Shown here: positions 7,424 through 60,124 of the stretch, piece by piece | How positions within the stretch are numbered: the stretch's first letter is position 1 | How the letters are laid out: each line of letters starts with the position of its first letter | DNA from: Candidatus Saccharimonadota bacterium | Lineage (GTDB): Bacteria; Patescibacteriota; Saccharimonadia; Saccharimonadales; Saccharimonadaceae | DNA length: 64,000 bases | Assembly: GCA_017431725.1 (NCBI GenBank) | Contig: JAFRKN010000010.1 | Span: forward strand, 1-64,000 | Reading direction: 5' to 3' | Made by a program: the position numbers and the translations under genes | The notes under the pieces: model-generated | Databases searched by the model: none | What the model was told of the DNA's origin: nothing | The model's input: only the letters and a program-made list of their open reading frames with translations

Positions 7424-7655
7424 AAAATATTATTCCTTAAACTTTTGTTAATTTCAAATTCTTTTTATAGTATACCTCATTTTTCCACAATTTTCAAGAA
7501 GTTTTCCACATAGTTTTTAGGGAGTCTCTTTCTCCTGTGGAAAGTTTTTCCTCTGTTCCTATTTTTTTATATTAAACCATATTTTTCCTCACTAATTTCC
7601 TGTGGAAAACTCCATTTTCTATGCTATACTAATTAAAAAGGAGGTTAGTTACAAA
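7424..7655. other. probable oriC part 1 (DnaA boxes upstream of dnaA)
   Basis: The AT-rich spacer between rpmH and dnaA has DnaA-box-like sites TTTTCCACA at 7481-7489 and 7502-7510, and inverted TGTGGAAAG at 7536-7544 and TGTGGAAAA at 7601-7609. They match a TTWTCCACA-type box with T at position 3. AT-rich DNA at 7550-7590 could be the unwinding region. The boxes could also serve dnaA autoregulation. Confidence 0.6.
7622..7644 (+). promoter_or_regulatory. dnaA extended -10 and ribosome-binding site
   Basis: TGCTATACT (7622-7630) is an extended -10. AAGGAGG (7638-7644) lies 11 nt before the ATG at 7656. Unlike most first genes in this window, dnaA therefore has a short leader and a strong Shine-Dalgarno site, which supports ATG 7656 over the upstream GTG at 7602 that would place the -10 inside the coding region. 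Confidence 0.65.
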
Positions 7656-9020
7656 ATGTATGACGTTTGGAAAAACGCACTTGCTGAGATCGAGCAACAA
7701 GTTTCTGCCGCTAATTTTTCTACTTGGTTTCAAAACACTTCCCTCCTCTCTGCAGAAGATGGCAATATTAAAATCGGTGTCAAAAATTCCTTCTATGTCA
7801 AACAGCTCCGTGCTCGTTATCTCGAAATTATTATTTCTGCTCTCAAAAACAATAACATCAACGTCGTTAATGTAGAATTTGAGGTTAGTTCTAGCCCTAA
7901 AACCAAAATTAAATCTCGCGAAATTACCAAAAATCAAACTTCCTTCAAAGATCGCGTTAAAACCCTTCATCTTGAATCCAAAAAAAATCAACTTGAATAT
8001 CAAAACGGTCTTAACGATAAATATACCCTAGATAATTTCGTTGTTGGCTCCAATAACGATTTAGCGGTTTCTGCCGCTAAAAGCATCATTGATGCTCCTG
8101 GAACTCGTTATAATCCTTTTTTTCTTTACGGTGGTCCTGGTTTAGGTAAAACCCATCTCGTTCAAGCTATTGGCAACGAACTCTTAAAAAGAAACCCCAA
8201 CTTAAAAATTCTTTATACCCCCACCTCACACTTTTATTCTGACTTTATCGAAGCTATCCAAAATGGCAAAGGTAAAGAATTTAATCGTAAATTTCAAAAA
8301 CTTGATTGTCTTATTATTGATGATTTTCAATTTATCGTCAATAAAGAAAAATCTCAAGAAGAGTTCTTTAATATCTTTAACGACCTCTATCAACTCAATA
8401 AACAAATCATTGTTACTTCGGATCGTCTACCTAGTCAAATCAAAACCGTTGACGAACGTCTTGCTTCTCGCCTCACCTGGGCTGGTGCTTTCGACCTCCA
8501 GCTCCCCAAATTCGAAGACAAATGCGCCATTCTTCGCGCTAAAGCTGATCTTATGGGTGCCGAAATTGAACCAGAGGCTATCGAATATATTGCTGAAAAC
8601 GTTAATACTAATATCCGTGATCTCGAAGGAGAATTTTCTACTATTCTTTTAATGTCCGAGGTTAGAGGCCTTACTCCCTTAGAACTTATTAATAACGGCT
8701 CTGTTAGTGTTAATAAAATTTCTAAAATACGCCCTGTCTCCCCCAAACAAATCATCGAAAAAGTTGCCAAATATTTTAATTTAAGTGTAAAAGAAATGTG
8801 TGGAAAATCACGTGTCTCTAATATCAAAAATGCTCGCCAGGTCGCCATGTTTCTCCTCTCTAAAGAATTAAGTCTTAGCACTAATAAAATTGCCTCCGAA
8901 GTTGGTGTTAAAGACCATACTACTGTTATGCATGGAATTAAAAAAATTGAAAAAGATTTAAAATTAGATTTTGCTCTTCGTGATCAAATTGAAGCTATAA
9001 AGGAAAAAATCTATGGTTAA
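7656..9020 (+). CDS. dnaA: chromosomal replication initiator DnaA
   Basis: The product is 454 aa from the start chosen by its AAGGAGG site. Domain I is at about 1-80 (WKNALAEIEQQVSAANFSTWF). The AAA+ domain has Walker A GGPGLGKTH and Walker B LIIDDFQF. Domain IV, at the C-terminus, carries the DNA-binding signature KDHTTVMHGIKKIEKDL. DnaA-ATP binds oriC boxes and opens the duplex. It is followed by dnaN and recF. Confidence 0.97.
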   Translation: MYDVWKNALAEIEQQVSAANFSTWFQNTSLLSAEDGNIKIGVKNSFYVKQLRARYLEIIISALKNNNINVVNVEFEVSSSPKTKIKSREITKNQTSFKDRVKTLHLESKKNQLEYQNGLNDKYTLDNFVVGSNNDLAVSAAKSIIDAPGTRYNPFFLYGGPGLGKTHLVQAIGNELLKRNPNLKILYTPTSHFYSDFIEAIQNGKGKEFNRKFQKLDCLIIDDFQFIVNKEKSQEEFFNIFNDLYQLNKQIIVTSDRLPSQIKTVDERLASRLTWAGAFDLQLPKFEDKCAILRAKADLMGAEIEPEAIEYIAENVNTNIRDLEGEFSTILLMSEVRGLTPLELINNGSVSVNKISKIRPVSPKQIIEKVAKYFNLSVKEMCGKSRVSNIKNARQVAMFLLSKELSLSTNKIASEVGVKDHTTVMHGIKKIEKDLKLDFALRDQIEAIKEKIYG

Positions 9021-13671: not shown

Positions 13672-14973
13672 ATGATTAAAGTTGAAAAAATTATTCCCGG
13701 CGGCCAAGCACTTGGCACTCATGATGACGGTCGAAAAATTTTTTTCTGGAACGCCCTGCCAGACGAGTTGATTGAAGAATTCAAAATCACTAAAAAGAAA
13801 ACCCATTATTATGAAGCTATCGCCACTAAAATCAAACAGCCATCTAGCCATCGTATTGCACCAAAAGACGAGTGTTTTTTATCAACTTCTCCGTGGCAAA
13901 TCTTAGATTTTTCCTATGAAAATCATCTCAAAAAAACCTTAGTTAATGAAATTTTTAATGCACATAAAATTAAAATTGAATCCCCCGAAATTATTACCGA
14001 CAATCAAAAATATTTTTATCGCAACAAAATGGAATATGCTCTCTACTGGAATCATGGAACTCAAAAAATTCACCTTGCCTTTCACGCTCGTGGCTCTCAC
14101 CAAAAAATTCCTATCAAGCAGTCCTCTCTTGAAAGACCTGAAATTTTTGCTACAGCAGAAGCCATAGTTAATAATTTGAATATTCTTCAAGACGAAGCCC
14201 GTCGTTATCAATCACTTCTTTTAAGGTGTAACCAAAACGGTGAAGTTTCTGGCGGACTCTTTGAAAAACACAAACCTCACCCCGTATTTAAAAATCTCAC
14301 CGATCAAATTTTAGGTCAAAATTATTCTTACTCTCCTAATGGTTTTTTTCAAATTAACCTCCCTGTTTATGAACTTGCCCTAAAAGAAATTCAAAAACAC
14401 ATTCATACCGACAAAGTTCTCGATCTCTACGCTGGTGTTGGCACTATTGGTCTCTCCACTGCCCGTCACAAAAAACTCACTCTCGTCGAATCCGACCAAT
14501 CTGCCTTTTCAGAACTAGCTGAAAACTGCAAGAGGAATGAGTTCGAGGGAATCCGGCAGGTCAGTACCATTTTCGAGGAGCATATTTTTCGACAAAACTG
14601 CAAGAGGAATGGGTTCGAGGGGATCCGGAGTTACGACGAGGACGAGCGCGCCGACCCCGTGACGACGGGCGTCGGCGACGCGCCCCGAGAGCCCATTCCT
14701 CTTGCAATATTTAGCAAATCCGAAAATGTCACAGACTTTATCGAACCCGACCAAACTGTTATTCTTGATCCTCCTCGCGCCGGTTGCGACCGCAAATTAA
14801 TCGATAAATTAAATGAAATTAGGCCAAAAACTATCATTTATCTTTCTTGTAATCCTGCCACTCAAGCTCGCGACGTTAAATTATTATTAGAAAACTATCA
14901 AATTAAACATATCCAACCTTTCAACTTTTTTCCTCGCACTCCTCACATTGAAAACCTAGTTGTTTTGTGCTAA
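13672..14973 (+). CDS. TrmA/RlmD-like RNA m5U methyltransferase with in-frame palindromic insert
   Basis: The product is 433 aa. The SAM motif is VLDLYAGVGTIGLS, the catalytic cysteine region IIYLSCNPATQARD, and the DPPRAG motif VILDPPRAGC. FFQINLPVYELAL is also characteristic. These enzymes methylate C5 of uridine in tRNA or 23S rRNA; the exact substrate is unclear. Residues about 284-345 are not part of the fold: they are encoded by a palindromic element inserted between the SAM acidic motif and DPPRAG. The native ENxKRNG motif is present twice because part of the element is a direct repeat. TATAAT ends 8 nt before the ATG, so the mRNA is probably leaderless. Confidence 0.85.
   Translation: MIKVEKIIPGGQALGTHDDGRKIFFWNALPDELIEEFKITKKKTHYYEAIATKIKQPSSHRIAPKDECFLSTSPWQILDFSYENHLKKTLVNEIFNAHKIKIESPEIITDNQKYFYRNKMEYALYWNHGTQKIHLAFHARGSHQKIPIKQSSLERPEIFATAEAIVNNLNILQDEARRYQSLLLRCNQNGEVSGGLFEKHKPHPVFKNLTDQILGQNYSYSPNGFFQINLPVYELALKEIQKHIHTDKVLDLYAGVGTIGLSTARHKKLTLVESDQSAFSELAENCKRNEFEGIRQVSTIFEEHIFRQNCKRNGFEGIRSYDEDERADPVTTGVGDAPREPIPLAIFSKSENVTDFIEPDQTVILDPPRAGCDRKLIDKLNEIRPKTIIYLSCNPATQARDVKLLLENYQIKHIQPFNFFPRTPHIENLVVLC
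14521..14706 (+). repeat. in-gene palindromic element, composite, methyltransferase locus
   Basis: The arms are 14599-14616 and 14689-14706 (17 of 18 pair; left arm begins TGCAAGAGGAATGG). The core 14617-14688 is 72 nt, GC-rich and identical to the core in valS; it includes CCCCGTGACGACGGG and a GCGCCGACC/GGGCGTCGGCG-type stem. Upstream lies a direct repeat of the arm and core start (14522-14554 versus 14598-14632) separated by a piece resembling the ATPase-locus core (TCGAGGAGCATATTTTTCGA). The whole stays in frame with no stop. Confidence 0.85.
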
Positions 14974-20618: not shown

Positions 20619-23381
20619 ATGAGATTTAGTAGTAGTTATGAACCGGGGGAATATGAAAGTGATATTTACGCTGCCTGGGAAACCAGCGGCATTTTTAATC
20701 CAAAAATGACCACTTTACCTGTCGATAATAACGACGATGGTATTGACGACCGTGAAGAAAATATTTCTGATTCTAAAACCTTTTCTATCGTCATGCCACC
20801 ACCAAACGCTAATGGTAATTTACATATTGGTCATGGCTTAACTATCGCTCTCGAAGATTCCCTTACTCGTTACTATCGCTTAAAAGGCCGTTCGTCTTGG
20901 TATATTCCTGGTGCCGACCATGCTGGTTTTGAAACCTGGGTCGTCTATGAAAAAGAATTAGAAAAATCCGGTCATACTCGTTTTGAATATTCACGTGATG
21001 AGCTTTATGCTCGCGTCTGGAATTTCGTCGCCGAACAACGCGGCAATATGGAACTCCAACTTCGAGCCCTAGGCGCCTCCTGTTCTTGGGATGATTTAAC
21101 TTTTACTTTAGATGAAAATGTTATCGACCGTGTCTATACGACTTTTGAAAAAATGTGGAATGATGGTTTAATTTATCGAGGGGAAAAACTCGTTAATTTT
21201 TGTCCAAAACACCAAACCGCTTTTGCCGATATCGAAGTTGAGCACGAAGACGAAAAAGGTACTCTTTGGGACATCGCCTATAAACTAGTCGAAGAGCCAA
21301 AAGATGCATCTTTAGCTCTATCTCGAGAGATTATTGTTTCTACCACTCGTCCCGAAACCCTCTTTGGCGACGTCGCTGTGGCAGTAAATCCTAATGACGA
21401 ACGCTACAAAGATTTAATTGGCAAACACGTCGAATTGCCTTTAACAGATAGAACTATCCCTATTATCGCTGATGAACACGCCGACCCCGAATATGGCACC
21501 GGTGCTGTCAAAATTACCCCAGCTCACGATTTCGACGATTTCGAAGTCGGCGAACGCCATCATCTCGAACGCATCCAAGTTATTGCCGAAGACGGCACGA
21601 TGATTAATGTTCCCGAAGAATATAACGGTTCAACTACAGCAGAATGTCGCAAAAAAGCCCTCAAAAATCTTAAAGAACAAGGCCTCTTAAAAGGCGAGAA
21701 AAAAATCGAGCATACCGTAGCGCATTGTTATAAATGTGGCACCACTATCGAGCCAATGCTTAAAGAACAATGGTTTATTGATGTCGAAAGACTCGCCAAA
21801 ACTGCCATCGAACATCTAGAAAATAATGAAATTAAATTCTATCCCGATAACAAAAGAAAAATTCTGATTGATTATCTCAAAAACTTAAAAGACTGGAATA
21901 TCTCTCGCCAAATTCCCTGGGGTATTGCCATTCCCATGTTTAGAAAAATTGACGATCGCGCCACCGACGAGCCAGAGTGGATTTTTGATCGCAGAACCAA
22001 TCTAAAAGAAATCGAAAAAGCTGGTGTTAAATATATTCGCGACGAAGATACTTTTGACACTTGGTTTTCTAGCTCTCATTGGCCTATTGTCTGTACCAAC
22101 TGGACCGAAGAAAATTATAACCCCTATTATCCTCTCAATGTTATGGAAACTGGCGCCGATATCCTCTTCGCTTGGGTTGCCCGGATGATTATGATGGGGA
22201 TTTACGTTACTGGCGAAGTTCCTTTCCGCGAAGTCTATCTTCACGGTCTCGTTCTCGACGCTCACGGTAAAAAAATGAGTAAATCTAAGGGTAACGTTAT
22301 TAATCCTATGGATCTCGTTACCAGATATGGTTCCGACGCTTTCCGTTTAGGCATTCTAAGGGGTCGTTCTGCCGGCATGAACCAAGCCTTCTCCGAAAAC
22401 TCAGTTATTTCCGGTCGTAACCTCTGCAATAAACTCTGGAACATCTCCCGCCTCATCCAATCTCTCGTCGATGAAAACGAGCAAAGCGAGCGAGAAAATC
22501 TTATTTCTGAGGGGATCCGGAGTTACGACGAGGACGAGCGCGCCGACCCCGTGACGACGGGCGTCGGCGACGCGCCCCGAAGAAATAATGATTTCTCGCT
22601 CGCGTATTCTACCCTCAACATGGGCGAAGACTGGATCTGTCGCGAAATTAATGATTGCTTGAAACAGGTCGAAAAAGATATGAAAGCCTACCGCTTTGCC
22701 GAAGCCGTCGAAATTCTTTACCAGACCATTTGGGATAAATACGCCGATTGGTTCTTAGAGAGCCAAAAAATCTATAAAAATACGGAACTCTTAAAGATCA
22801 CTCTAGAGATGCTACTGATTGCTCTCCACCCCTTTGCCCCCTTCGTTACCGAAACAATCTGGCAGAATCTTTCTTGGACCGAAGGCTTTATTGCCACCGC
22901 TAAATGGCCCGTAAAACTTCAATACGACCCAATTTCCGCCGAGAATTTTGAAAACATAAGAATTATCGTATCTGAAGTCAGAACGACCTTACAGAGCCTG
23001 CCAGGCACTAATAATAGCAAAAAATATAACCTTCTTTATGACAACGATAGCCTCGTAGATGATAACCGACTCCTTATTCAAACCCTGTCGAAGGTCCCAG
23101 CCATTAACCCTCTTGATGGTTCCCCACGCGGCCTCCGACTCGCTCTGGTTAATCACGAACTTTATCTCGACGTTTCCGAAAAAGTTGTTACTACATACAA
23201 AGACACTTTAACCGAAAAAATTCTTAGCACCGGTCGTGAGCTAAATGCTCTTAACGCTCGTATGATGAACCCAAATTACATCAAAAAAGCCCCAGAGCAT
23301 CTTGTTAAAGAAACCGAAGATGCTATCAGGGAGAAAGAATCCCTAATCAATCGTTTGAAACAGCAACTCTCCCTTATCTAA
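20619..23381 (+). CDS. valS: valyl-tRNA synthetase with in-frame palindromic insert
   Basis: The product is 920 aa. Class I signatures are GNLHIGHGL (HIGH) and KKMSKSKGN (KMSKS). The editing domain holds GTGAVKITPAHDFDDFEVG, and a C-terminal coiled coil is present. It charges tRNA-Val. Residues about 623-662 are encoded by a palindromic element inserted just after the catalytic core, at the junction with the anticodon-binding domain, a position likely to tolerate a loop. The 24 residues from its core are identical to those in the methyltransferase at 13672. TATAAT ends 6 nt before the ATG. Confidence 0.95.
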   Translation: MRFSSSYEPGEYESDIYAAWETSGIFNPKMTTLPVDNNDDGIDDREENISDSKTFSIVMPPPNANGNLHIGHGLTIALEDSLTRYYRLKGRSSWYIPGADHAGFETWVVYEKELEKSGHTRFEYSRDELYARVWNFVAEQRGNMELQLRALGASCSWDDLTFTLDENVIDRVYTTFEKMWNDGLIYRGEKLVNFCPKHQTAFADIEVEHEDEKGTLWDIAYKLVEEPKDASLALSREIIVSTTRPETLFGDVAVAVNPNDERYKDLIGKHVELPLTDRTIPIIADEHADPEYGTGAVKITPAHDFDDFEVGERHHLERIQVIAEDGTMINVPEEYNGSTTAECRKKALKNLKEQGLLKGEKKIEHTVAHCYKCGTTIEPMLKEQWFIDVERLAKTAIEHLENNEIKFYPDNKRKILIDYLKNLKDWNISRQIPWGIAIPMFRKIDDRATDEPEWIFDRRTNLKEIEKAGVKYIRDEDTFDTWFSSSHWPIVCTNWTEENYNPYYPLNVMETGADILFAWVARMIMMGIYVTGEVPFREVYLHGLVLDAHGKKMSKSKGNVINPMDLVTRYGSDAFRLGILRGRSAGMNQAFSENSVISGRNLCNKLWNISRLIQSLVDENEQSERENLISEGIRSYDEDERADPVTTGVGDAPRRNNDFSLAYSTLNMGEDWICREINDCLKQVEKDMKAYRFAEAVEILYQTIWDKYADWFLESQKIYKNTELLKITLEMLLIALHPFAPFVTETIWQNLSWTEGFIATAKWPVKLQYDPISAENFENIRIIVSEVRTTLQSLPGTNNSKKYNLLYDNDSLVDDNRLLIQTLSKVPAINPLDGSPRGLRLALVNHELYLDVSEKVVTTYKDTLTEKILSTGRELNALNARMMNPNYIKKAPEHLVKETEDAIREKESLINRLKQQLSLI
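22486..22603 (+). repeat. in-gene palindromic element, valS locus
   Basis: The arms are 22486-22508 and 22581-22603 (20 of 23 pair; left arm begins GCGAGCGAGAAAATC). The core 22509-22580 is identical over 72 nt to that at 14617-14688, although the arms share nothing with the arms there. The open reading frame is kept and the conserved hairpin CCCCGTGACGACGGG is read as Pro-Val-Thr-Thr-Gly. Confidence 0.9.
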
Positions 23382-25571: not shown

Positions 25572-28022
25572 ATGAGTCTTTCTGGTCTGTCAAGTGCTGA
25601 AGTAGCCGCCAAAATTAAACAGGGAAGAACCAACCAAATTCCCCGTCAAAATTCCCATTCAATTCAAAAAATCATCACGCGCAATCTATTTACCATTTTC
25701 AACCTCGTTAATCTTATCCTTGCCCTGATGGTTTTATTTGTTGGCTCCTACAAAAATCTTCTCTTTATTTTTATTGCTATCGCCAACACCCTCATCGCTA
25801 TTGTCAATGAAATTCGCGCTAAAAAAACCATCGATAAAATGCGCCTTTTAGCCGAGCAACGACCCACTGTCATCAGGGATGGCAAAAATCTCCAAATCGA
25901 CCCAAACGAAATTGTCGACGGCGACCTCCTTATTTTTGGTCTTGGCGACCAAATTCTTGTCGATTCCGAAATCAAAGAGGGCACAATTGAAGTTAACGAA
26001 TCTTTCATCACTGGCGAATCCGACAACATCAAAAAACAACCTGGCGATAAACTAATCTCTGGTAGCTTTGTGGTTTCTGGCATCTGTAAAGCCACCGCTA
26101 TCTCTGTTGGCGCAGAGAATTATATCTCAAAACTCGAATCTTCCGCTCATACCATCAAAACGGCCGACTCCAAACTCTTCAAAATCATGAACAACATTGT
26201 TAAATACATTTCTTTTGTTCTTATCCCTATCGGCGCTCTTCTCCTCTGGTCACGTTTTCGCATCGAAGGCGAAACCACCGAAATTGCTGTCACCTCTACC
26301 GTCGCTGCTCTCATCAACATGATCCCAGAAGGCCTCATCCTCTTAACCTCCTCTGTCCTCGCCCTCTCCACTATTCGTCTCAGTCGCCAAAAAGTCCTCG
26401 TTCAAGACCTCTATTCTATCGAAACTCTTGCCCGTGTCGACTGTATCGCTCTTGATAAAACCGGCACCTTAACTACCGGCAATCTGACCGTAAAAAATTT
26501 TATTCCAGTCAGTGATGGCAAACTTCTTTCCCCTACCGACCTCAAAAATCCTCAAAATCGCGCCGAAAAAGCCCTTCAGAACACACTAAAGCTTATTTTA
26601 AGCCACGACACAGCAAACAACGCCACTTCTACCGCCTTAAAAGGAGAACTCCTCAAAAATACCAAATTTGAGCCCACAGAACAAATCCTAGAGACAATTC
26701 CTTTCTCTTCCGATCGCAAATATTCCGGCGTCAAAACTAAAAAAGCCATCTACCTCATGGGCGCCCCCGAATTTCTCACAGATCAAAAATACGACATAGA
26801 AGGGAATTACCGCATTTTGGCTGTTGTTAAATGCGAGGAATACCCTCGTTCGAGGAGCATATTTTCCGACGGGGAAAATACGGAGCGAGCTCTCCCCGTA
26901 ACGACGGGCGAGAGCGAGCGTTCCGAGAACGACGGGTATCCTCGCATTTCGTCAAAGTTGATAGGTCTTATTTTATTCGAAGATGAACTTCGCAAAGACG
27001 CCAAAAATATTATCAACTATTTCTATGACAACGATGTTGATATCAAAATCATCTCTGGCGATAATCAAAACACTGTCGAAAACATTGCCGCTTTGGCTGG
27101 TGTTAAAAACATCAATAGTATTGATCTCTCTAATCTAAAAACCCCTATCGATTATGATAAACTTGTAGAAGACTACAACATCTTCACCCGTGTCAAGCCC
27201 AGCCAGAAAAAATCTCTCATCCTTGCCTTAAAAAAACAGGGGAAAACAGTTGCCATGACTGGTGATGGCGTCAACGATATCCTCGCCATGAAAGAAGCCG
27301 ATTGTTCCATCGCTATCGGTGAAGGCTCCGACGCAGCGAGAAAGTCTGCCAAACTTGTCCTCTTAAGCTCCGACTTTTCCGCTTTCCCTAAGATTATCGA
27401 CGAGGGCCGCCAAACCATCAACAATCTTGAGCGTTCCACGGCGCTCTTCCTTGCTAAAACCGTCTATGCTAGCATCCTTGCCGTTCTCTTCGTCTTTCTC
27501 CCCTTAAGATATCCTTTTACCCCCATCGAAATGACCCTTCTCAACTTTACCTGTATTGGATTCCCAGCTTTTATCCTCGCTCTCGAAAAAAACACCGACC
27601 GCATCAAAAATCGTTTTGCCAAAAACATCATGCAATATTCCGTCCCTATTGGCCTCACCGTCACAATTTGCACCCTTATTCTTTCAATTCTCGCCCACGT
27701 CAACGATTTTTCGCATTTCGAGCTCACCACTACTTCAGTTTTCGTTACCTTCACGATTGACCTTATTCTCATCTATTGGATTTCTCGGCCCCTCAATCTG
27801 CTCCGCGCAACTCTTCTTCTCACTATCATTGGCATCATGGTTGCCACCTTCCTTATCCCCTTTACTCGCCAATTCTTCGAATTCACTTTCCTCACCGAAA
27901 ACGGTCTGGTTGTTACCATCTCCGTCGCCGCTATCGGTATTCTCATTTTCGCCATCATCCGTCGCCTGATGTACCGCCTCTCCGCCCGTGTCTTCAAAAC
28001 CCGCCCACATTTAAATCTTTAA
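25572..28022 (+). CDS. P-type cation-transporting ATPase (CtpE-like) with in-frame insert
   Basis: The product is 816 aa. The phosphorylation motif is DKTGTLTTG, the actuator TGES motif is present (FITGESDNIKKQ), and the hinge motif is MTGDGVNDILAMKEADCSIA. The transmembrane segments, including MIPEGLILLTSS, and NLERSTALFLAKTVYA resemble actinobacterial CtpE, a calcium transporter; ion specificity is inferred. Residues about 420-460, in the nucleotide-binding domain, derive from a palindromic insert. Translationally coupled to femX. Confidence 0.88.
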   Translation: MSLSGLSSAEVAAKIKQGRTNQIPRQNSHSIQKIITRNLFTIFNLVNLILALMVLFVGSYKNLLFIFIAIANTLIAIVNEIRAKKTIDKMRLLAEQRPTVIRDGKNLQIDPNEIVDGDLLIFGLGDQILVDSEIKEGTIEVNESFITGESDNIKKQPGDKLISGSFVVSGICKATAISVGAENYISKLESSAHTIKTADSKLFKIMNNIVKYISFVLIPIGALLLWSRFRIEGETTEIAVTSTVAALINMIPEGLILLTSSVLALSTIRLSRQKVLVQDLYSIETLARVDCIALDKTGTLTTGNLTVKNFIPVSDGKLLSPTDLKNPQNRAEKALQNTLKLILSHDTANNATSTALKGELLKNTKFEPTEQILETIPFSSDRKYSGVKTKKAIYLMGAPEFLTDQKYDIEGNYRILAVVKCEEYPRSRSIFSDGENTERALPVTTGESERSENDGYPRISSKLIGLILFEDELRKDAKNIINYFYDNDVDIKIISGDNQNTVENIAALAGVKNINSIDLSNLKTPIDYDKLVEDYNIFTRVKPSQKKSLILALKKQGKTVAMTGDGVNDILAMKEADCSIAIGEGSDAARKSAKLVLLSSDFSAFPKIIDEGRQTINNLERSTALFLAKTVYASILAVLFVFLPLRYPFTPIEMTLLNFTCIGFPAFILALEKNTDRIKNRFAKNIMQYSVPIGLTVTICTLILSILAHVNDFSHFELTTTSVFVTFTIDLILIYWISRPLNLLRATLLLTIIGIMVATFLIPFTRQFFEFTFLTENGLVVTISVAAIGILIFAIIRRLMYRLSARVFKTRPHLNL
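26829..26949 (+). repeat. in-gene palindromic element, ATPase locus
   Basis: The arms are AAATGCGAGGAATACCC (26829-26845) and GGGTATCCTCGCATTT (26934-26949). The core has two hairpins: GGAGC-ATATTTTCC-GAC-GGGGAAAATACGGAGC, and CTCCCCGTAACGACGGGCGAG. The second carries the family motif, again read as Pro-Val-Thr-Thr-Gly. The AGCGTTCCGAG tail recurs at the second argS element. Confidence 0.85.
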
Positions 28023-30197: not shown

Positions 30198-30236
30198 TCA
30201 TATGACATTCATATGACAAACATATGACATGTCATA
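30198..30236. repeat. 39-bp direct repeat, downstream copy flanking fic
   Basis: This perfect copy of 31622-31660 consists of three spaced CATATGACA units and ends ATGTCATA. It overlaps the last codons and TGA stop of fic. Confidence 0.95.
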
Positions 30237-31581
30237 CGTCTTTTTCAAAAATCTGCTCTTTTACATTATTTTCTATCTTGTATGAAACATTTTTCCCGTC
30301 ACTATATGAAAAAACCAACCCCAACTCTTTTAATGCCTTTAAATCTCTATACGCAGTCCTTAGTGCTACACCATGCATCAAGCTATAAGACGTTCCACTA
30401 GTTGATATGTCATTTCCACTAGCCAAAAATTTTAACGTGTCTACCTGCCGACTATTTAACATTGGATATTTCGTTCTAATAATCACGCTGACCCCCTCAT
30501 TCTCTGACTTCTTCTTTTCTATATGTTCATTAAAAGCATTAATTGCCTTCAAAACACACCTCAAATTATAATCGTAGAAATATGTAAAATCATAATCATC
30601 CTGTTCTGCATAAATATATGCGTACGCGTAAGAATGTTGAGATCTTTTTAATATCATTGAGATAGGTATATATCCAATTGCCCAATAATTATGTCTAAAC
30701 AAATACCAATAAAATACCGCCCGTGCCAACCTACCATTTCCATCAGGGAAAGGGTGTAAATAACCAATCCAAAAATGCAATTGAATTGCTTTTATCACTG
30801 GGTGGATAAAATCCGAATCATCATTCGCGTAAGCAACTAGTCGTTCCAATTCATATTTAACAAATTCAGCTTTCGGCGGTACATGAGCGACCATTGCGTC
30901 ATAGTTCACTACAATTTCGTCGCTGTCTTTTCTTAGTTCTCCAGATTTATATTCATCATCTAGTGTTTTTTCCGTCAACTCACTTTGTAAAGTTTGCAAC
31001 AAATACAATGATAATTCACGATCTTTATATTCGTTCTCGATTTTTTTCATTACTCTATAATTATTTACTATCATTTGTTCGCTCTTATTGCGAGGCCTGA
31101 TTTTTTCGGTCAACATTTTTTTTGCATATTTGCTCGCCGTATCTGCCCCTTCTAGCTGGCTAGAAGCAATTGATTCTTCAACAATGCCTCGTGCCAAATA
31201 TTTTTGACGGTTATTAACTTGAACCGTTGTCGTTGTATCCGCCAAAAAGGCTCCACCCATATACATATCTATTTCTCGTAAATATTTATCCGTATATAAA
31301 GGTCGATACCACGTAAAATAAATACCTTTTTCGGATTTAACTGGAATTTCTACAGAAGAGATTTTTCTAATCTGCCTTATAAGATACCATGCATCGCCCG
31401 ATCGATTAAGATGAAATTTTGCCTTATCCCAATAAAGATATTCTTTGTTTGATACTCGATTAAACATTTTTTCTACTACAGACCGATTTTCTCCTAAAAG
31501 ATAACCAAGCAATAGCTTTGAGCCATGTTCTTTTTCTACCTCTGGCGGGGCTTCGATTTTTATCCGTTCATTCTCATACAT
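30232..31581 (-). CDS. Fic family protein (probable AMPylator) with C-terminal winged helix
   Basis: The product is 449 aa. The catalytic Fic motif is HPFPDGNGRLAR (about residues 274-285), and an N-terminal inhibitory helix motif SSQLEG at about 136-141 fits the (S/T)xxxE(G/N) class. The C-terminal region (about 370-445) looks like a winged helix. Fic enzymes transfer AMP or other moieties to protein hydroxyls; the target is unknown. The gene lies exactly between perfect 39-bp direct repeats, and its stop codon is inside one of them, suggesting a mobile cassette or self-binding operators. Confidence 0.9.
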   Translation of the reverse strand: MYENERIKIEAPPEVEKEHGSKLLLGYLLGENRSVVEKMFNRVSNKEYLYWDKAKFHLNRSGDAWYLIRQIRKISSVEIPVKSEKGIYFTWYRPLYTDKYLREIDMYMGGAFLADTTTTVQVNNRQKYLARGIVEESIASSQLEGADTASKYAKKMLTEKIRPRNKSEQMIVNNYRVMKKIENEYKDRELSLYLLQTLQSELTEKTLDDEYKSGELRKDSDEIVVNYDAMVAHVPPKAEFVKYELERLVAYANDDSDFIHPVIKAIQLHFWIGYLHPFPDGNGRLARAVFYWYLFRHNYWAIGYIPISMILKRSQHSYAYAYIYAEQDDYDFTYFYDYNLRCVLKAINAFNEHIEKKKSENEGVSVIIRTKYPMLNSRQVDTLKFLASGNDISTSGTSYSLMHGVALRTAYRDLKALKELGLVFSYSDGKNVSYKIENNVKEQIFEKDV

Positions 31582-31621: not shown

Positions 31622-31660
31622 TCATATGACATTCATATGACAAACATATGACATGTCATA
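31622..31660. repeat. 39-bp direct repeat, upstream copy flanking fic
   Basis: This is identical to 30198-30236. It lies about 40 bp upstream of the fic start, with another partial unit (CATATGACA) at about 31600. That position suits an operator or promoter as well as a recombination site. Confidence 0.95.
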
Positions 31661-39386: not shown

Positions 39387-39406
39387 AGAATCTACTTTAC
39401 ATTTCT

Positions 39407-39517
39407 AGCACTCAAATGTTTATTTGTGGGGGCATCCGCAGTTGCTGCGAGGACGCAGCGAGGAGCCCCGTGAAGACGGGCGCGACGAGCGTCCCCACAA
39501 ATAAACATTTGAGTGCT
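39407..39517 (+). repeat. intergenic palindromic element with perfect 25-nt arms
   Basis: The arms are 39407-39431 and 39493-39517 (25 of 25 pair; left arm begins AGCACTCAAATG). The core 39432-39492 carries GCAGTTGCTGC and CCCCGTGAAGACGGGCGC, the family hairpin. It occupies the tlyA-pilM gap. Confidence 0.9.
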
Positions 39518-39574
39518 TGCATTATTAAAGCTTGGCGCACAGTCATCACGAATAAAAACTACCTTATGTTTTCT

Positions 39575-39605
39575 AACACTTAAATATTTATTTGTGGGGG
39601 CATCC
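39575..39605 (+). repeat. degenerate extra copy of the left arm of the 39407 element
   Basis: AACACTTAAATATTTATTTG plus TGGGGGCATCC matches the left arm and the first core bases at 39408-39437, in the same orientation. Similarity also extends about 15 nt upstream. The rest of the core and the right arm are missing. Confidence 0.75.
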
Positions 39606-58327: not shown

Positions 58328-60124
58328 ATGCAAGAAATTGAAACTAGTCTTAAAAAAGTTATTCAAGGCCTTTACGATCTCGATTTTGATCCCGAAATTA
58401 CTCCTTCGCCCGAAAATATCGACGCCGATTATTCTTCAAACGCTCCGCTCAAGCTTGCCAAAATACTCCACAAATCTCCCCTAGACATCGCCAGAGAAAT
58501 AGAGATTAATTTTGGAACTTTAGAGACCGTGCCCCGCGAGCCTTACGAGGCGAGCGAAGTGAGTGAGCCCCGTAACGACGGGCGCGAACGAACGAGGTCG
58601 AAAAAGTTCAAAATTAGTCTCTCTTCTCCTGGCTTTATCAATTTTACTTTGTCCGATGATTACTTATTGAACGCCGTTAAAGATTTAAACGAAAATTTTG
58701 CAAGAAGTATTTCTAGCAACGAATTTAAAGGCAAGACTGTCGTCTGCGAATTTAGCGACCCCAATCCCTTTAAAGTCCTTCACGTCGGCCATCTCTATAC
58801 TAGCATTGTTGGTGATTCTATCAGTCGACTTTTTGAATATGCTGGTGCAAAAGTTATTCGGGCTAACTTTGGTGGCGATGTCGGCCTTCACGTCGCTAAA
58901 ACCATGTATATTTTAAAACAAAAGAATCTAGATGATTTAACTATTGAAGATATTGCGAAATGCTACGTTGAGGGTACCTCCGCCTACGAAGAAGATGAAA
59001 AAGCCAAACAGGAAATTACCGAACTCAATAAAGAAATTTATAAAATCAATTCCGAAAATATTCACGATTCTGATCTTGCCAAATTATACTGGAAGGGCAG
59101 AGAATTATCTTACGATTATTTTAATCAATTTTACGATTCCATCGGTGTAAAATTCGATAAGTATTATCCTGAGTCTACCGTTGCCGAACTTGGAACCAAA
59201 AAAGTAAAAGAAGAATTAGAAAATGGTGTTTATGAAGAATCTAACGGTGCCATTATTTTCGACGGTAAAAAATTCGGCCTCCACACCCGTGTTTTTATCA
59301 ATCAAGCGGGTGTCCCGACTTACGAGACCAAAGACGTTGGTTTAATTTTTACTAAATGGGATGATTATCATTTTGATAAGTCTGTTATCATCACTGGTTC
59401 CGAGCAACTTGAATATATGAAAGTCGTTCTCAAGTCTATTGAACAATATGCCCCTGAATTAGTAGAAAAAACTAGCCACTTAACTCACGGCCTAGTTAAA
59501 CTTCCTGGTAACGTTAAAATGTCATCTAGAAAAGGAAACTTTCTCAGGGCTGTTGATGTCATTAGTCTAATCCGCGAAGAGCTAAAAGATTCCTATGGCT
59601 CAACTGACGACACCATTTCTCTCGCCGCTACTAAATACGCTTTTCTCAAATATAAAATGGGCGGCAACATCATTTTTGATCCAAAAGAATCCGTTAAAAT
59701 GACTGGCAATTCTGGCCCCTATCTCCTCTACTCTTGTGTCAGAGCCAAGAAGATTTTGGCGTCTGCAAATGATGCTTTTGAGGAGCATAATCGCCGACGG
59801 GGCGATTACGGAGCGACCGAAGCCCGTAACGACGGGCCTGAGGGAGCGTTCCGAAAAAGCATCATTGCAGATGCAGAGCGTAATCTTATTAAAAAGATTC
59901 TTGAATACAAGACGTTGTTGCAGGAGGCGGTCAAAGAAATGGCTCCGCACAAAGTCGCCAATTATTTATACGAACTTGCCCAATCTTTTTCCCGCTTCTA
60001 TGAAAACTGTCCTGTTATCGGCTGTAATCGCGAATCCGAACGTCTCAAACTTGTTAAAATTTATCTAGAAACTATGGCCCACGGGCTAAATATTTTAGGA
60101 ATTAAAATCCCAGAGGAGATGTAA
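58328..60124 (+). CDS. argS: arginyl-tRNA synthetase with two in-frame palindromic inserts
   Basis: The product is 598 aa. The HIGH motif is FKVLHVGHL, the KMSKS-like motif MSSRKGNF, and an Arg-N-like domain opens the protein. DALR-type C-terminal helices end LNILGIKIPEEM. Residues about 60-97 (end of the Arg-N domain) and about 479-515 (start of the anticodon-binding domain) come from two different palindromic inserts, read as Pro/Ala-Arg-Asn-Asp-Gly at the hairpin, a different frame from that in valS. TATAAT ends about 8 nt before the ATG. The stop overlaps the orn start. Confidence 0.94.
   Translation: MQEIETSLKKVIQGLYDLDFDPEITPSPENIDADYSSNAPLKLAKILHKSPLDIAREIEINFGTLETVPREPYEASEVSEPRNDGRERTRSKKFKISLSSPGFINFTLSDDYLLNAVKDLNENFARSISSNEFKGKTVVCEFSDPNPFKVLHVGHLYTSIVGDSISRLFEYAGAKVIRANFGGDVGLHVAKTMYILKQKNLDDLTIEDIAKCYVEGTSAYEEDEKAKQEITELNKEIYKINSENIHDSDLAKLYWKGRELSYDYFNQFYDSIGVKFDKYYPESTVAELGTKKVKEELENGVYEESNGAIIFDGKKFGLHTRVFINQAGVPTYETKDVGLIFTKWDDYHFDKSVIITGSEQLEYMKVVLKSIEQYAPELVEKTSHLTHGLVKLPGNVKMSSRKGNFLRAVDVISLIREELKDSYGSTDDTISLAATKYAFLKYKMGGNIIFDPKESVKMTGNSGPYLLYSCVRAKKILASANDAFEEHNRRRGDYGATEARNDGPEGAFRKSIIADAERNLIKKILEYKTLLQEAVKEMAPHKVANYLYELAQSFSRFYENCPVIGCNRESERLKLVKIYLETMAHGLNILGIKIPEEM
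58505..58618 (+). repeat. in-gene palindromic element 1, argS locus
   Basis: The arms are 58505-58528 (begins ATTAATTTTGGAACTTTAG) and 58596-58618; about 18 positions pair with a bulge. The core contains GCGAGCCTTACGAGGCGAGC and CCCCGTAACGACGGGCGC. Open in frame. Confidence 0.8.
59762..59871 (+). repeat. in-gene palindromic element 2, argS locus
   Basis: The arms TCTGCAAATGATGCTTTT (59762-59779) and AAAAGCATCATTGCAGA (59855-59871) pair apart from one bulge. The core GAGGAGCATAATCGCC-GAC-GGGGCGATTACGGAGCGA then GCCCGTAACGACGGGC closely parallels that in the P-type ATPase gene. Confidence 0.85.

What the first reader, a model, noticed from the sequence alone, without database searches (positions are those of the whole stretch)
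58505..59871. The same element is translated in two different frames
In the methyltransferase, valS and the ATPase the shared hairpin is read Pro-Val-Thr-Thr-Gly. In both argS copies it is read Arg-Asn-Asp-Gly, one frame away. The element therefore appears selected to be open in more than one frame rather than for one peptide sequence.
Basis: seen in the sequence. Interest (0 to 1): 0.72.

Follow-up and report, generated by a model that had tools for sequence, protein, structure and literature searches.

The report
Hairpin repeat read in every frame
A gut Saccharibacterium carries about thirty copies of a folded DNA repeat inside working genes, read in all six frames, and the DNA fold rather than the encoded peptide seems to be what evolution preserves.

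Summary
The window's genome (752 kb, genus of Candidatus Saccharibacteria) has at least 30 copies of a ~120-nt hairpin element; 27 lie in frame in long ORFs. Sense frame 0 (PVTTG) has 9, sense frame 2 (RNDG) 9, sense frame 1 one, antisense frames 4, 3 and 1: all six frames. In one valS loop, different species carry it in frame 0 or frame 2. Frame 1 is almost unused because the usual loop (TRA) puts a stop there; the one frame-1 copy has loop TGCC. So frame use looks like a stop filter. Direct selection for multi-frame openness gets only mixed support: stops are in excess over all alternative frames, but depleted once sense frame 1 is left out. What is conserved is nucleic-acid structure: a sequence-conserved three-way-junction core on ~20-bp arms that differ between loci yet pair. 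In five argS orthologues, 4-fold sites differ at 57% upstream but 3% in the core, and arms change in compensating pairs. Copies sit mostly (71 of 79) on the C-rich strand, whatever the gene direction. It works like Rickettsia palindromic elements, but is strand-biased and keeps its pairing. The mover and any function are inferred.

The parts
58501..58624 (+). element copy 1 in argS (arms, core, loop motif 58569-58582), sense frame 2, RNDG
59758..59874 (+). element copy 2 in argS (core 59780-59855, loop 59823-59836), sense frame 2, RNDG; shared with at least 4 other species
58328..60124 (+). argS host gene, 598 aa, Arg_tRNA_synt_N, tRNA-synt_1d, DALR_1
14594..14711 (+). element copy in methyltransferase ORF 13672-14973, sense frame 0, PVTTG
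22486..22603 (+). element copy in valS ORF 20619-23381, sense frame 0, PVTTG; hot-spot loop
26829..26953 (+). element copy in P-type ATPase ORF 25572-28022, sense frame 0, PVTTG; shared-arm subfamily
39396..39528 (+). intergenic element copy, arms 39396-39431 / 39493-39528
39570..39605 (+). partial copy (5' arm plus first ~10 nt of core) beside the intergenic copy

Best explanation
A non-autonomous, interspersed palindromic element of ruminant-gut Saccharibacteria. Shown: it is a ~76-nt core (two hairpins, tandem GA/GA mismatches, loop CCCGTRANGACGGG) closed by ~20-bp arms whose sequence differs between loci but which pair. It sits in frame in conserved genes in all six frames and mostly on one chromosome strand. 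At a fixed site it keeps core sequence and arm pairing while the encoded arm peptide drifts. Inferred: the working form is the folded single strand (ssDNA exposed during replication, less likely an RNA from that strand). It spreads to new loci in an orientation set by the replication fork, and only insertions that are in frame and stop-free in the host frame survive, which makes it look multi-frame. Arms are kept paired by selection on the fold, probably helped by template switching between arms. The moving enzyme is unknown.
For: Copy number and control. Frames; same valS loop in two frames. Frame 1 used only by a copy without the loop stop (L175). Arms: distal-arm self-pair scores above the 95th percentile of other-pair scores in 66 of 73 copies, above the 99th in 46. 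Five argS orthologues: 98.6% of cells paired, 10 pairs with changes on both sides (shuffles 4.0 +- 1.3; slid versions 0-2); 4-fold sites differ 4/129 in core against 237/416 upstream, arm peptide differs 44-49% against 15% upstream. Strand: element strand C-rich for 67 of 73 copies and 4 of 6 further ones. Wobble: GT 33 vs AC 13 in the arms on the element strand, also where the gene is antisense (17 vs 2), so the preserved fold is not the mRNA's. Shared arms in 4 own copies in 3 genes show arms can travel with the core.
Against: No Y1 transposase in 43 of 45 genus genomes, and RT absent from element-bearing G003 and G249: no mover identified. Retained core and arms at old sites could mean a host function rather than a selfish element. 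Copies are related, so probabilities are not independent. dnaA does not mark a skew switch, so leading/lagging is not established. 8 of 79 copies are on the other strand.
Confidence: 0.6

Rival explanations
1. Pure mutational maintenance: replication template switching (quasipalindrome correction) builds and repairs the arms; no selection on the fold.
For: Template switching is reported to create and maintain hairpins (PMC8794818, passages) and is proposed for coding palindromes of Nematomorpha (PMC6649704, passages). L076 left arm matches the native empty site (score 10, 0 of 72 other arms as good) while its right arm does not (52 of 72); L060 right arm matches native (11, 0 of 72) while the left does not. 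Strand bias fits a fork process.
Against: GT exceeds AC mismatches on the element strand (33 vs 13), where copying errors should be symmetric. The core is conserved at synonymous sites. A 1-nt 5'-arm bulge is present in 47 of 73 copies. In the rest of the 19 filled/empty pairs neither arm is clearly native.
Confidence: 0.2
2. A host function at DNA level: an oriented chromosomal signal (replication, segregation or repair site) tolerated in genes.
For: Strand bias independent of gene direction; conservation at one site over deep species divergence.
Against: Exact-motif copy number runs from 0 to 24 among genomes of one genus (0 in 4 of 43); different subtypes occupy the same loop in different species.
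Confidence: 0.12
3. An RNA-level element of the host mRNA (splicing, ribosome bypass, or mRNA stability).
For: Very stable folds; most genic copies are sense (46 of 70).
Against: 24 of 70 are antisense, with arms that also pair; GT bias stays on the element strand there; genic copies are stop-free in their host frame, which removal or bypass would not need.
Confidence: 0.05

Closest known systems
Rickettsia palindromic elements (RPE) and Wolbachia WPE
   Same: ~100-150-nt palindromes, in frame in conserved genes without destroying them, solvent-exposed sites, sites shared between species (PMC2229807, PMC3767692, passages)
   Different: Here core plus locus-variable paired arms, all six frames, strand bias, arms kept paired by double changes; RPEs are described as losing repeat identity with time (PMC6649704 citing Claverie and Ogata); phylum differs
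CGTC- and GTAG-tagged REPs (RAYT)
   Same: short interspersed palindromes, some intragenic (PMC3733652, passages)
   Different: REPs are 20-40 bp with an unpaired terminal tag; here ~120 nt, no such tag seen, CGTC falls inside the paired loop stem; no Y1 transposase
Coding palindromes of Nematomorpha mitochondria
   Same: hairpins inside translated genes with arms evolving together (PMC6649704, abstract and passages)
   Different: those are perfect repeats whose arms encode conserved protein regions; here a shared, conserved core family with imperfect arms
Enterobacterial RU and other MITEs with ORFs
   Same: small elements fused in frame to genes (PMC2759123 listing; PMC2229807 passages)
   Different: many MITEs there have terminal inverted repeats and target duplications; no fixed target duplication was seen here

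Membership tests
Rickettsia palindromic element | ~100-150-nt palindromic repeat in many dispersed copies | tested here: met
   30 copies, ~120 nt
Rickettsia palindromic element | in-frame insertion in conserved protein genes | tested here: met
   27 of 30 own copies in ORFs of at least 130 codons
Rickettsia palindromic element | sequence homology to the described RPE families | not tested
   no Rickettsia sequence was compared; 27 of 27 named genome stretches with the type-A pattern are Saccharibacteria
Rickettsia palindromic element | palindrome decays with time (as described in PMC6649704) | tested here: not met
   pairing retained by double changes in 5 argS orthologues; poorly paired or degenerate copies do exist, L012 and L028
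GTAG REP / RAYT | Y1 tyrosine transposase partner | tested here: not met
   PF01797 in 2 of 45 genus genomes, none in G000, G003, G249
CGTC REP | unpaired CGTC tag at one end of a 20-40-bp palindrome | tested here: not met
   CGTC lies in the paired stem; element is longer
Rfam RNA families | match to a curated model at gathering score | tested here: not met
   only tRNAs in the window
Replication template-switch palindrome | one arm native, other arm its inverted copy | tested here: inconclusive
   clear in 2 copies (L076, L060); not in the other copies of the 19 filled/empty pairs

The most novel reading that the evidence does not exclude
A new kind of strand-locked single-strand DNA element: its folded strand is produced at the replication fork, inserts in fork-set orientation by an unknown enzyme or by fork template switching, and is afterwards kept by selection on the fold inside essential genes, so that genes such as argS and valS encode a DNA structure and a protein at once.
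Probability: 0.3. Interest if true: 0.85.

Novelty: new variant of a known kind. Interest (0 to 1): 0.68.

Why it matters
It extends protein-coding palindromic repeats to the Candidate Phyla Radiation. It gives a system, with many species and sites, in which frame-neutral insertion, strand bias and nucleotide-level constraint can be measured in the same element. The filled and empty argS and valS loops make the old question of how such palindromes move and why they persist directly testable.

Tried and rejected
Rfam: tRNAs only in the window, nothing in five sampled stretches. Viral contigs: 0 matches of the type-A pattern. IS200/RAYT partner rejected; RT partner not supported. mRNA-level function rejected by antisense copies.

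I first read the empty sites as a general 'inverted target duplication'. A score test against arms of other copies did not bear that out: only L060 in the 19 pairs, plus L076, are clear; the earlier wording in the notebook is too strong. I also first noted the argS core variant as argS-specific; one search shows it in L071 and L078 too. In G000 no other fetched copy carries it.

Leading/lagging strand: dnaA (window 7602-9020) does not coincide with a skew switch, so the C-rich strand is only presumed lagging from the general rule that leading strands are G-rich (PMC2684129, abstract in listing).

Not in print, as far as these searches of the open library go: searches listed no title on such an element in Saccharibacteria or Patescibacteria; of the papers listed by the Saccharibacteria and Patescibacteria searches only PMC10221324 was opened on this point (passages). 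Ogata 2002 (PMC186582) is not held; RPE statements come from the papers named. PMC5896051 was looked at in passages and not used.

Selection in the sample: the 73 copies are 24 own plus 49 from loci fetched by a type-A pattern and stretches of G003, G249, G313 and G285; copies nearer than 300 bases to a locus end and repeats of an identical context were dropped. Variants with other loops are missed, so counts are lower bounds.

Full report
What was claimed and what is there. That is correct. The window is contig C3 of a 752-kb genome. Named contigs that carry the type-A pattern are all Candidatus Saccharibacteria, many from ruminant guts (27 of 27 stretches). The loop motif CCCGTRANGACGGG occurs 24 times in the genome, 0 times reversed; six further copies with one loop change also fold.

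Frames. Of 30 own copies, 27 lie in ORFs of at least 130 codons: sense frame 0, 9; frame 2, 9; frame 1, 1; antisense 0, 1, 2: 4, 3, 1. In 73 copies from several genomes, 70 are in such ORFs: sense 22 / 0 / 24 for frames 0 / 1 / 2, antisense 9 / 7 / 8. Frame 1 is shut by the loop's own TAA or TGA. The only frame-1 copy (L175) has loop TGCC and so no stop. In valS, 30 orthologous loci show a hot-spot loop: 9 carry the exact motif there, 3 in frame 0 (L141, L147, L150) and 6 in frame 2 (L143, L144, L146, L164, L166, L170); L167-L169 are empty.

Alternative-frame stops in the core are 155 against 124.8 +- 8.6 in dinucleotide shuffles; without sense frame 1 they are 64 against 93.9 +- 7.8. With arms, the figures are 516 against 509.6, and 327 against 391.7 without frame 1. 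The depletion is real outside frame 1 but uneven, and related copies are not independent. A filter at each landing site, acting on a GC-rich (68%) sequence that has passed through several frames, gives the same picture.

Anatomy. Each copy is a ~76-nt core with two hairpins, in most copies bordered by GA/GA mismatches, on ~20-bp arms. The arms differ between loci, yet each pairs with its own partner: 66 of 73 above the 95th percentile of other pairs. A 1-nt bulge in the 5' arm is found in 47 of 73, in the 3' arm in 27. One subfamily (window 26895, two copies in L013, one in L018) shares its arms between genes.

Constraint. argS site 2 is filled in five species. Core 4-fold sites differ at 4 of 129 comparisons, upstream ones at 237 of 416; arm peptides differ at 44-49%. 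Pairing is 98.6%, with 10 pairs changed on both sides against 4.0 in shuffles and 0-2 in slid versions. A further relative, G012 (L028), has a degenerate insert there.

Strand. On third codon positions the element strand is C-rich for 67 of 73 copies and 4 of 6 more, whatever the gene direction. In G034 the total skew is negative in all 14 sampled stretches of C3 (to 285 kb) and positive in all 6 of C2 (to 189 kb), and all six listed copies follow it. The sign does not switch at dnaA, so which strand leads is unknown. At one site L061 and L079 carry different subtypes in opposite orientation.

Which strand folds. In the arms GT mismatches (33) exceed AC (13) on the element strand (p 0.0045; by copy 25 vs 9, p 0.009). 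In antisense genes it is 17 vs 2. The preserved fold is therefore more likely that of the element strand than of the message.

Origin of arms. Insertion sizes against empty sites, worked out by hand as 77 + unaligned query - gap, run from about 66 to 134. In two copies one arm is native and the other new; most comparisons cannot tell.

Distribution. Exact motif: 39 of 43 sampled genomes of the genus, 6 of 8 of genus g32, 2 elsewhere in 294 genomes of the order; 32 of 379 across a phylum sample. A 14-base motif found once in a distant genome need not be the element; those hits were not examined.

Verdict. Ordinary in kind (protein-coding palindromic repeats are known), unusual in being frame-neutral across all six frames, strand-biased and structure-conserved, and, by the searches named, not found described in this phylum.

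Noticed in passing
30198-30236 and 31622-31660: Identical 39-nt repeat rich in CATATGACA flanking the ORF 30232-31581 (minus strand).
   Followed up: no
14522-14593: 72-nt in-frame near-duplication just upstream of the methyltransferase element, with an element-like GAGGAGCATATTTTTCGA inside.
   Followed up: partly
7602-9020: dnaA lies here but GC skew keeps its sign on both sides; G034 and G027 contigs also keep one third-position sign across dnaA.
   Followed up: partly
L149, L152 (valS loop): Other long inserts (for example REVESSRVPESTGRRPDSTTRF) in the same loop suggest a second intragenic repeat family.
   Followed up: no
L061:5535 and L079:5135: Same gene site holds different element subtypes in opposite orientation, with similar arms.
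   Followed up: partly
G000:C8:7363-7974 and C7:1817-2203: Reverse transcriptase domain matches in the own genome (the second is below the curated cut-off), possibly diversity-generating retroelements (recalled, not tested).
   Followed up: no
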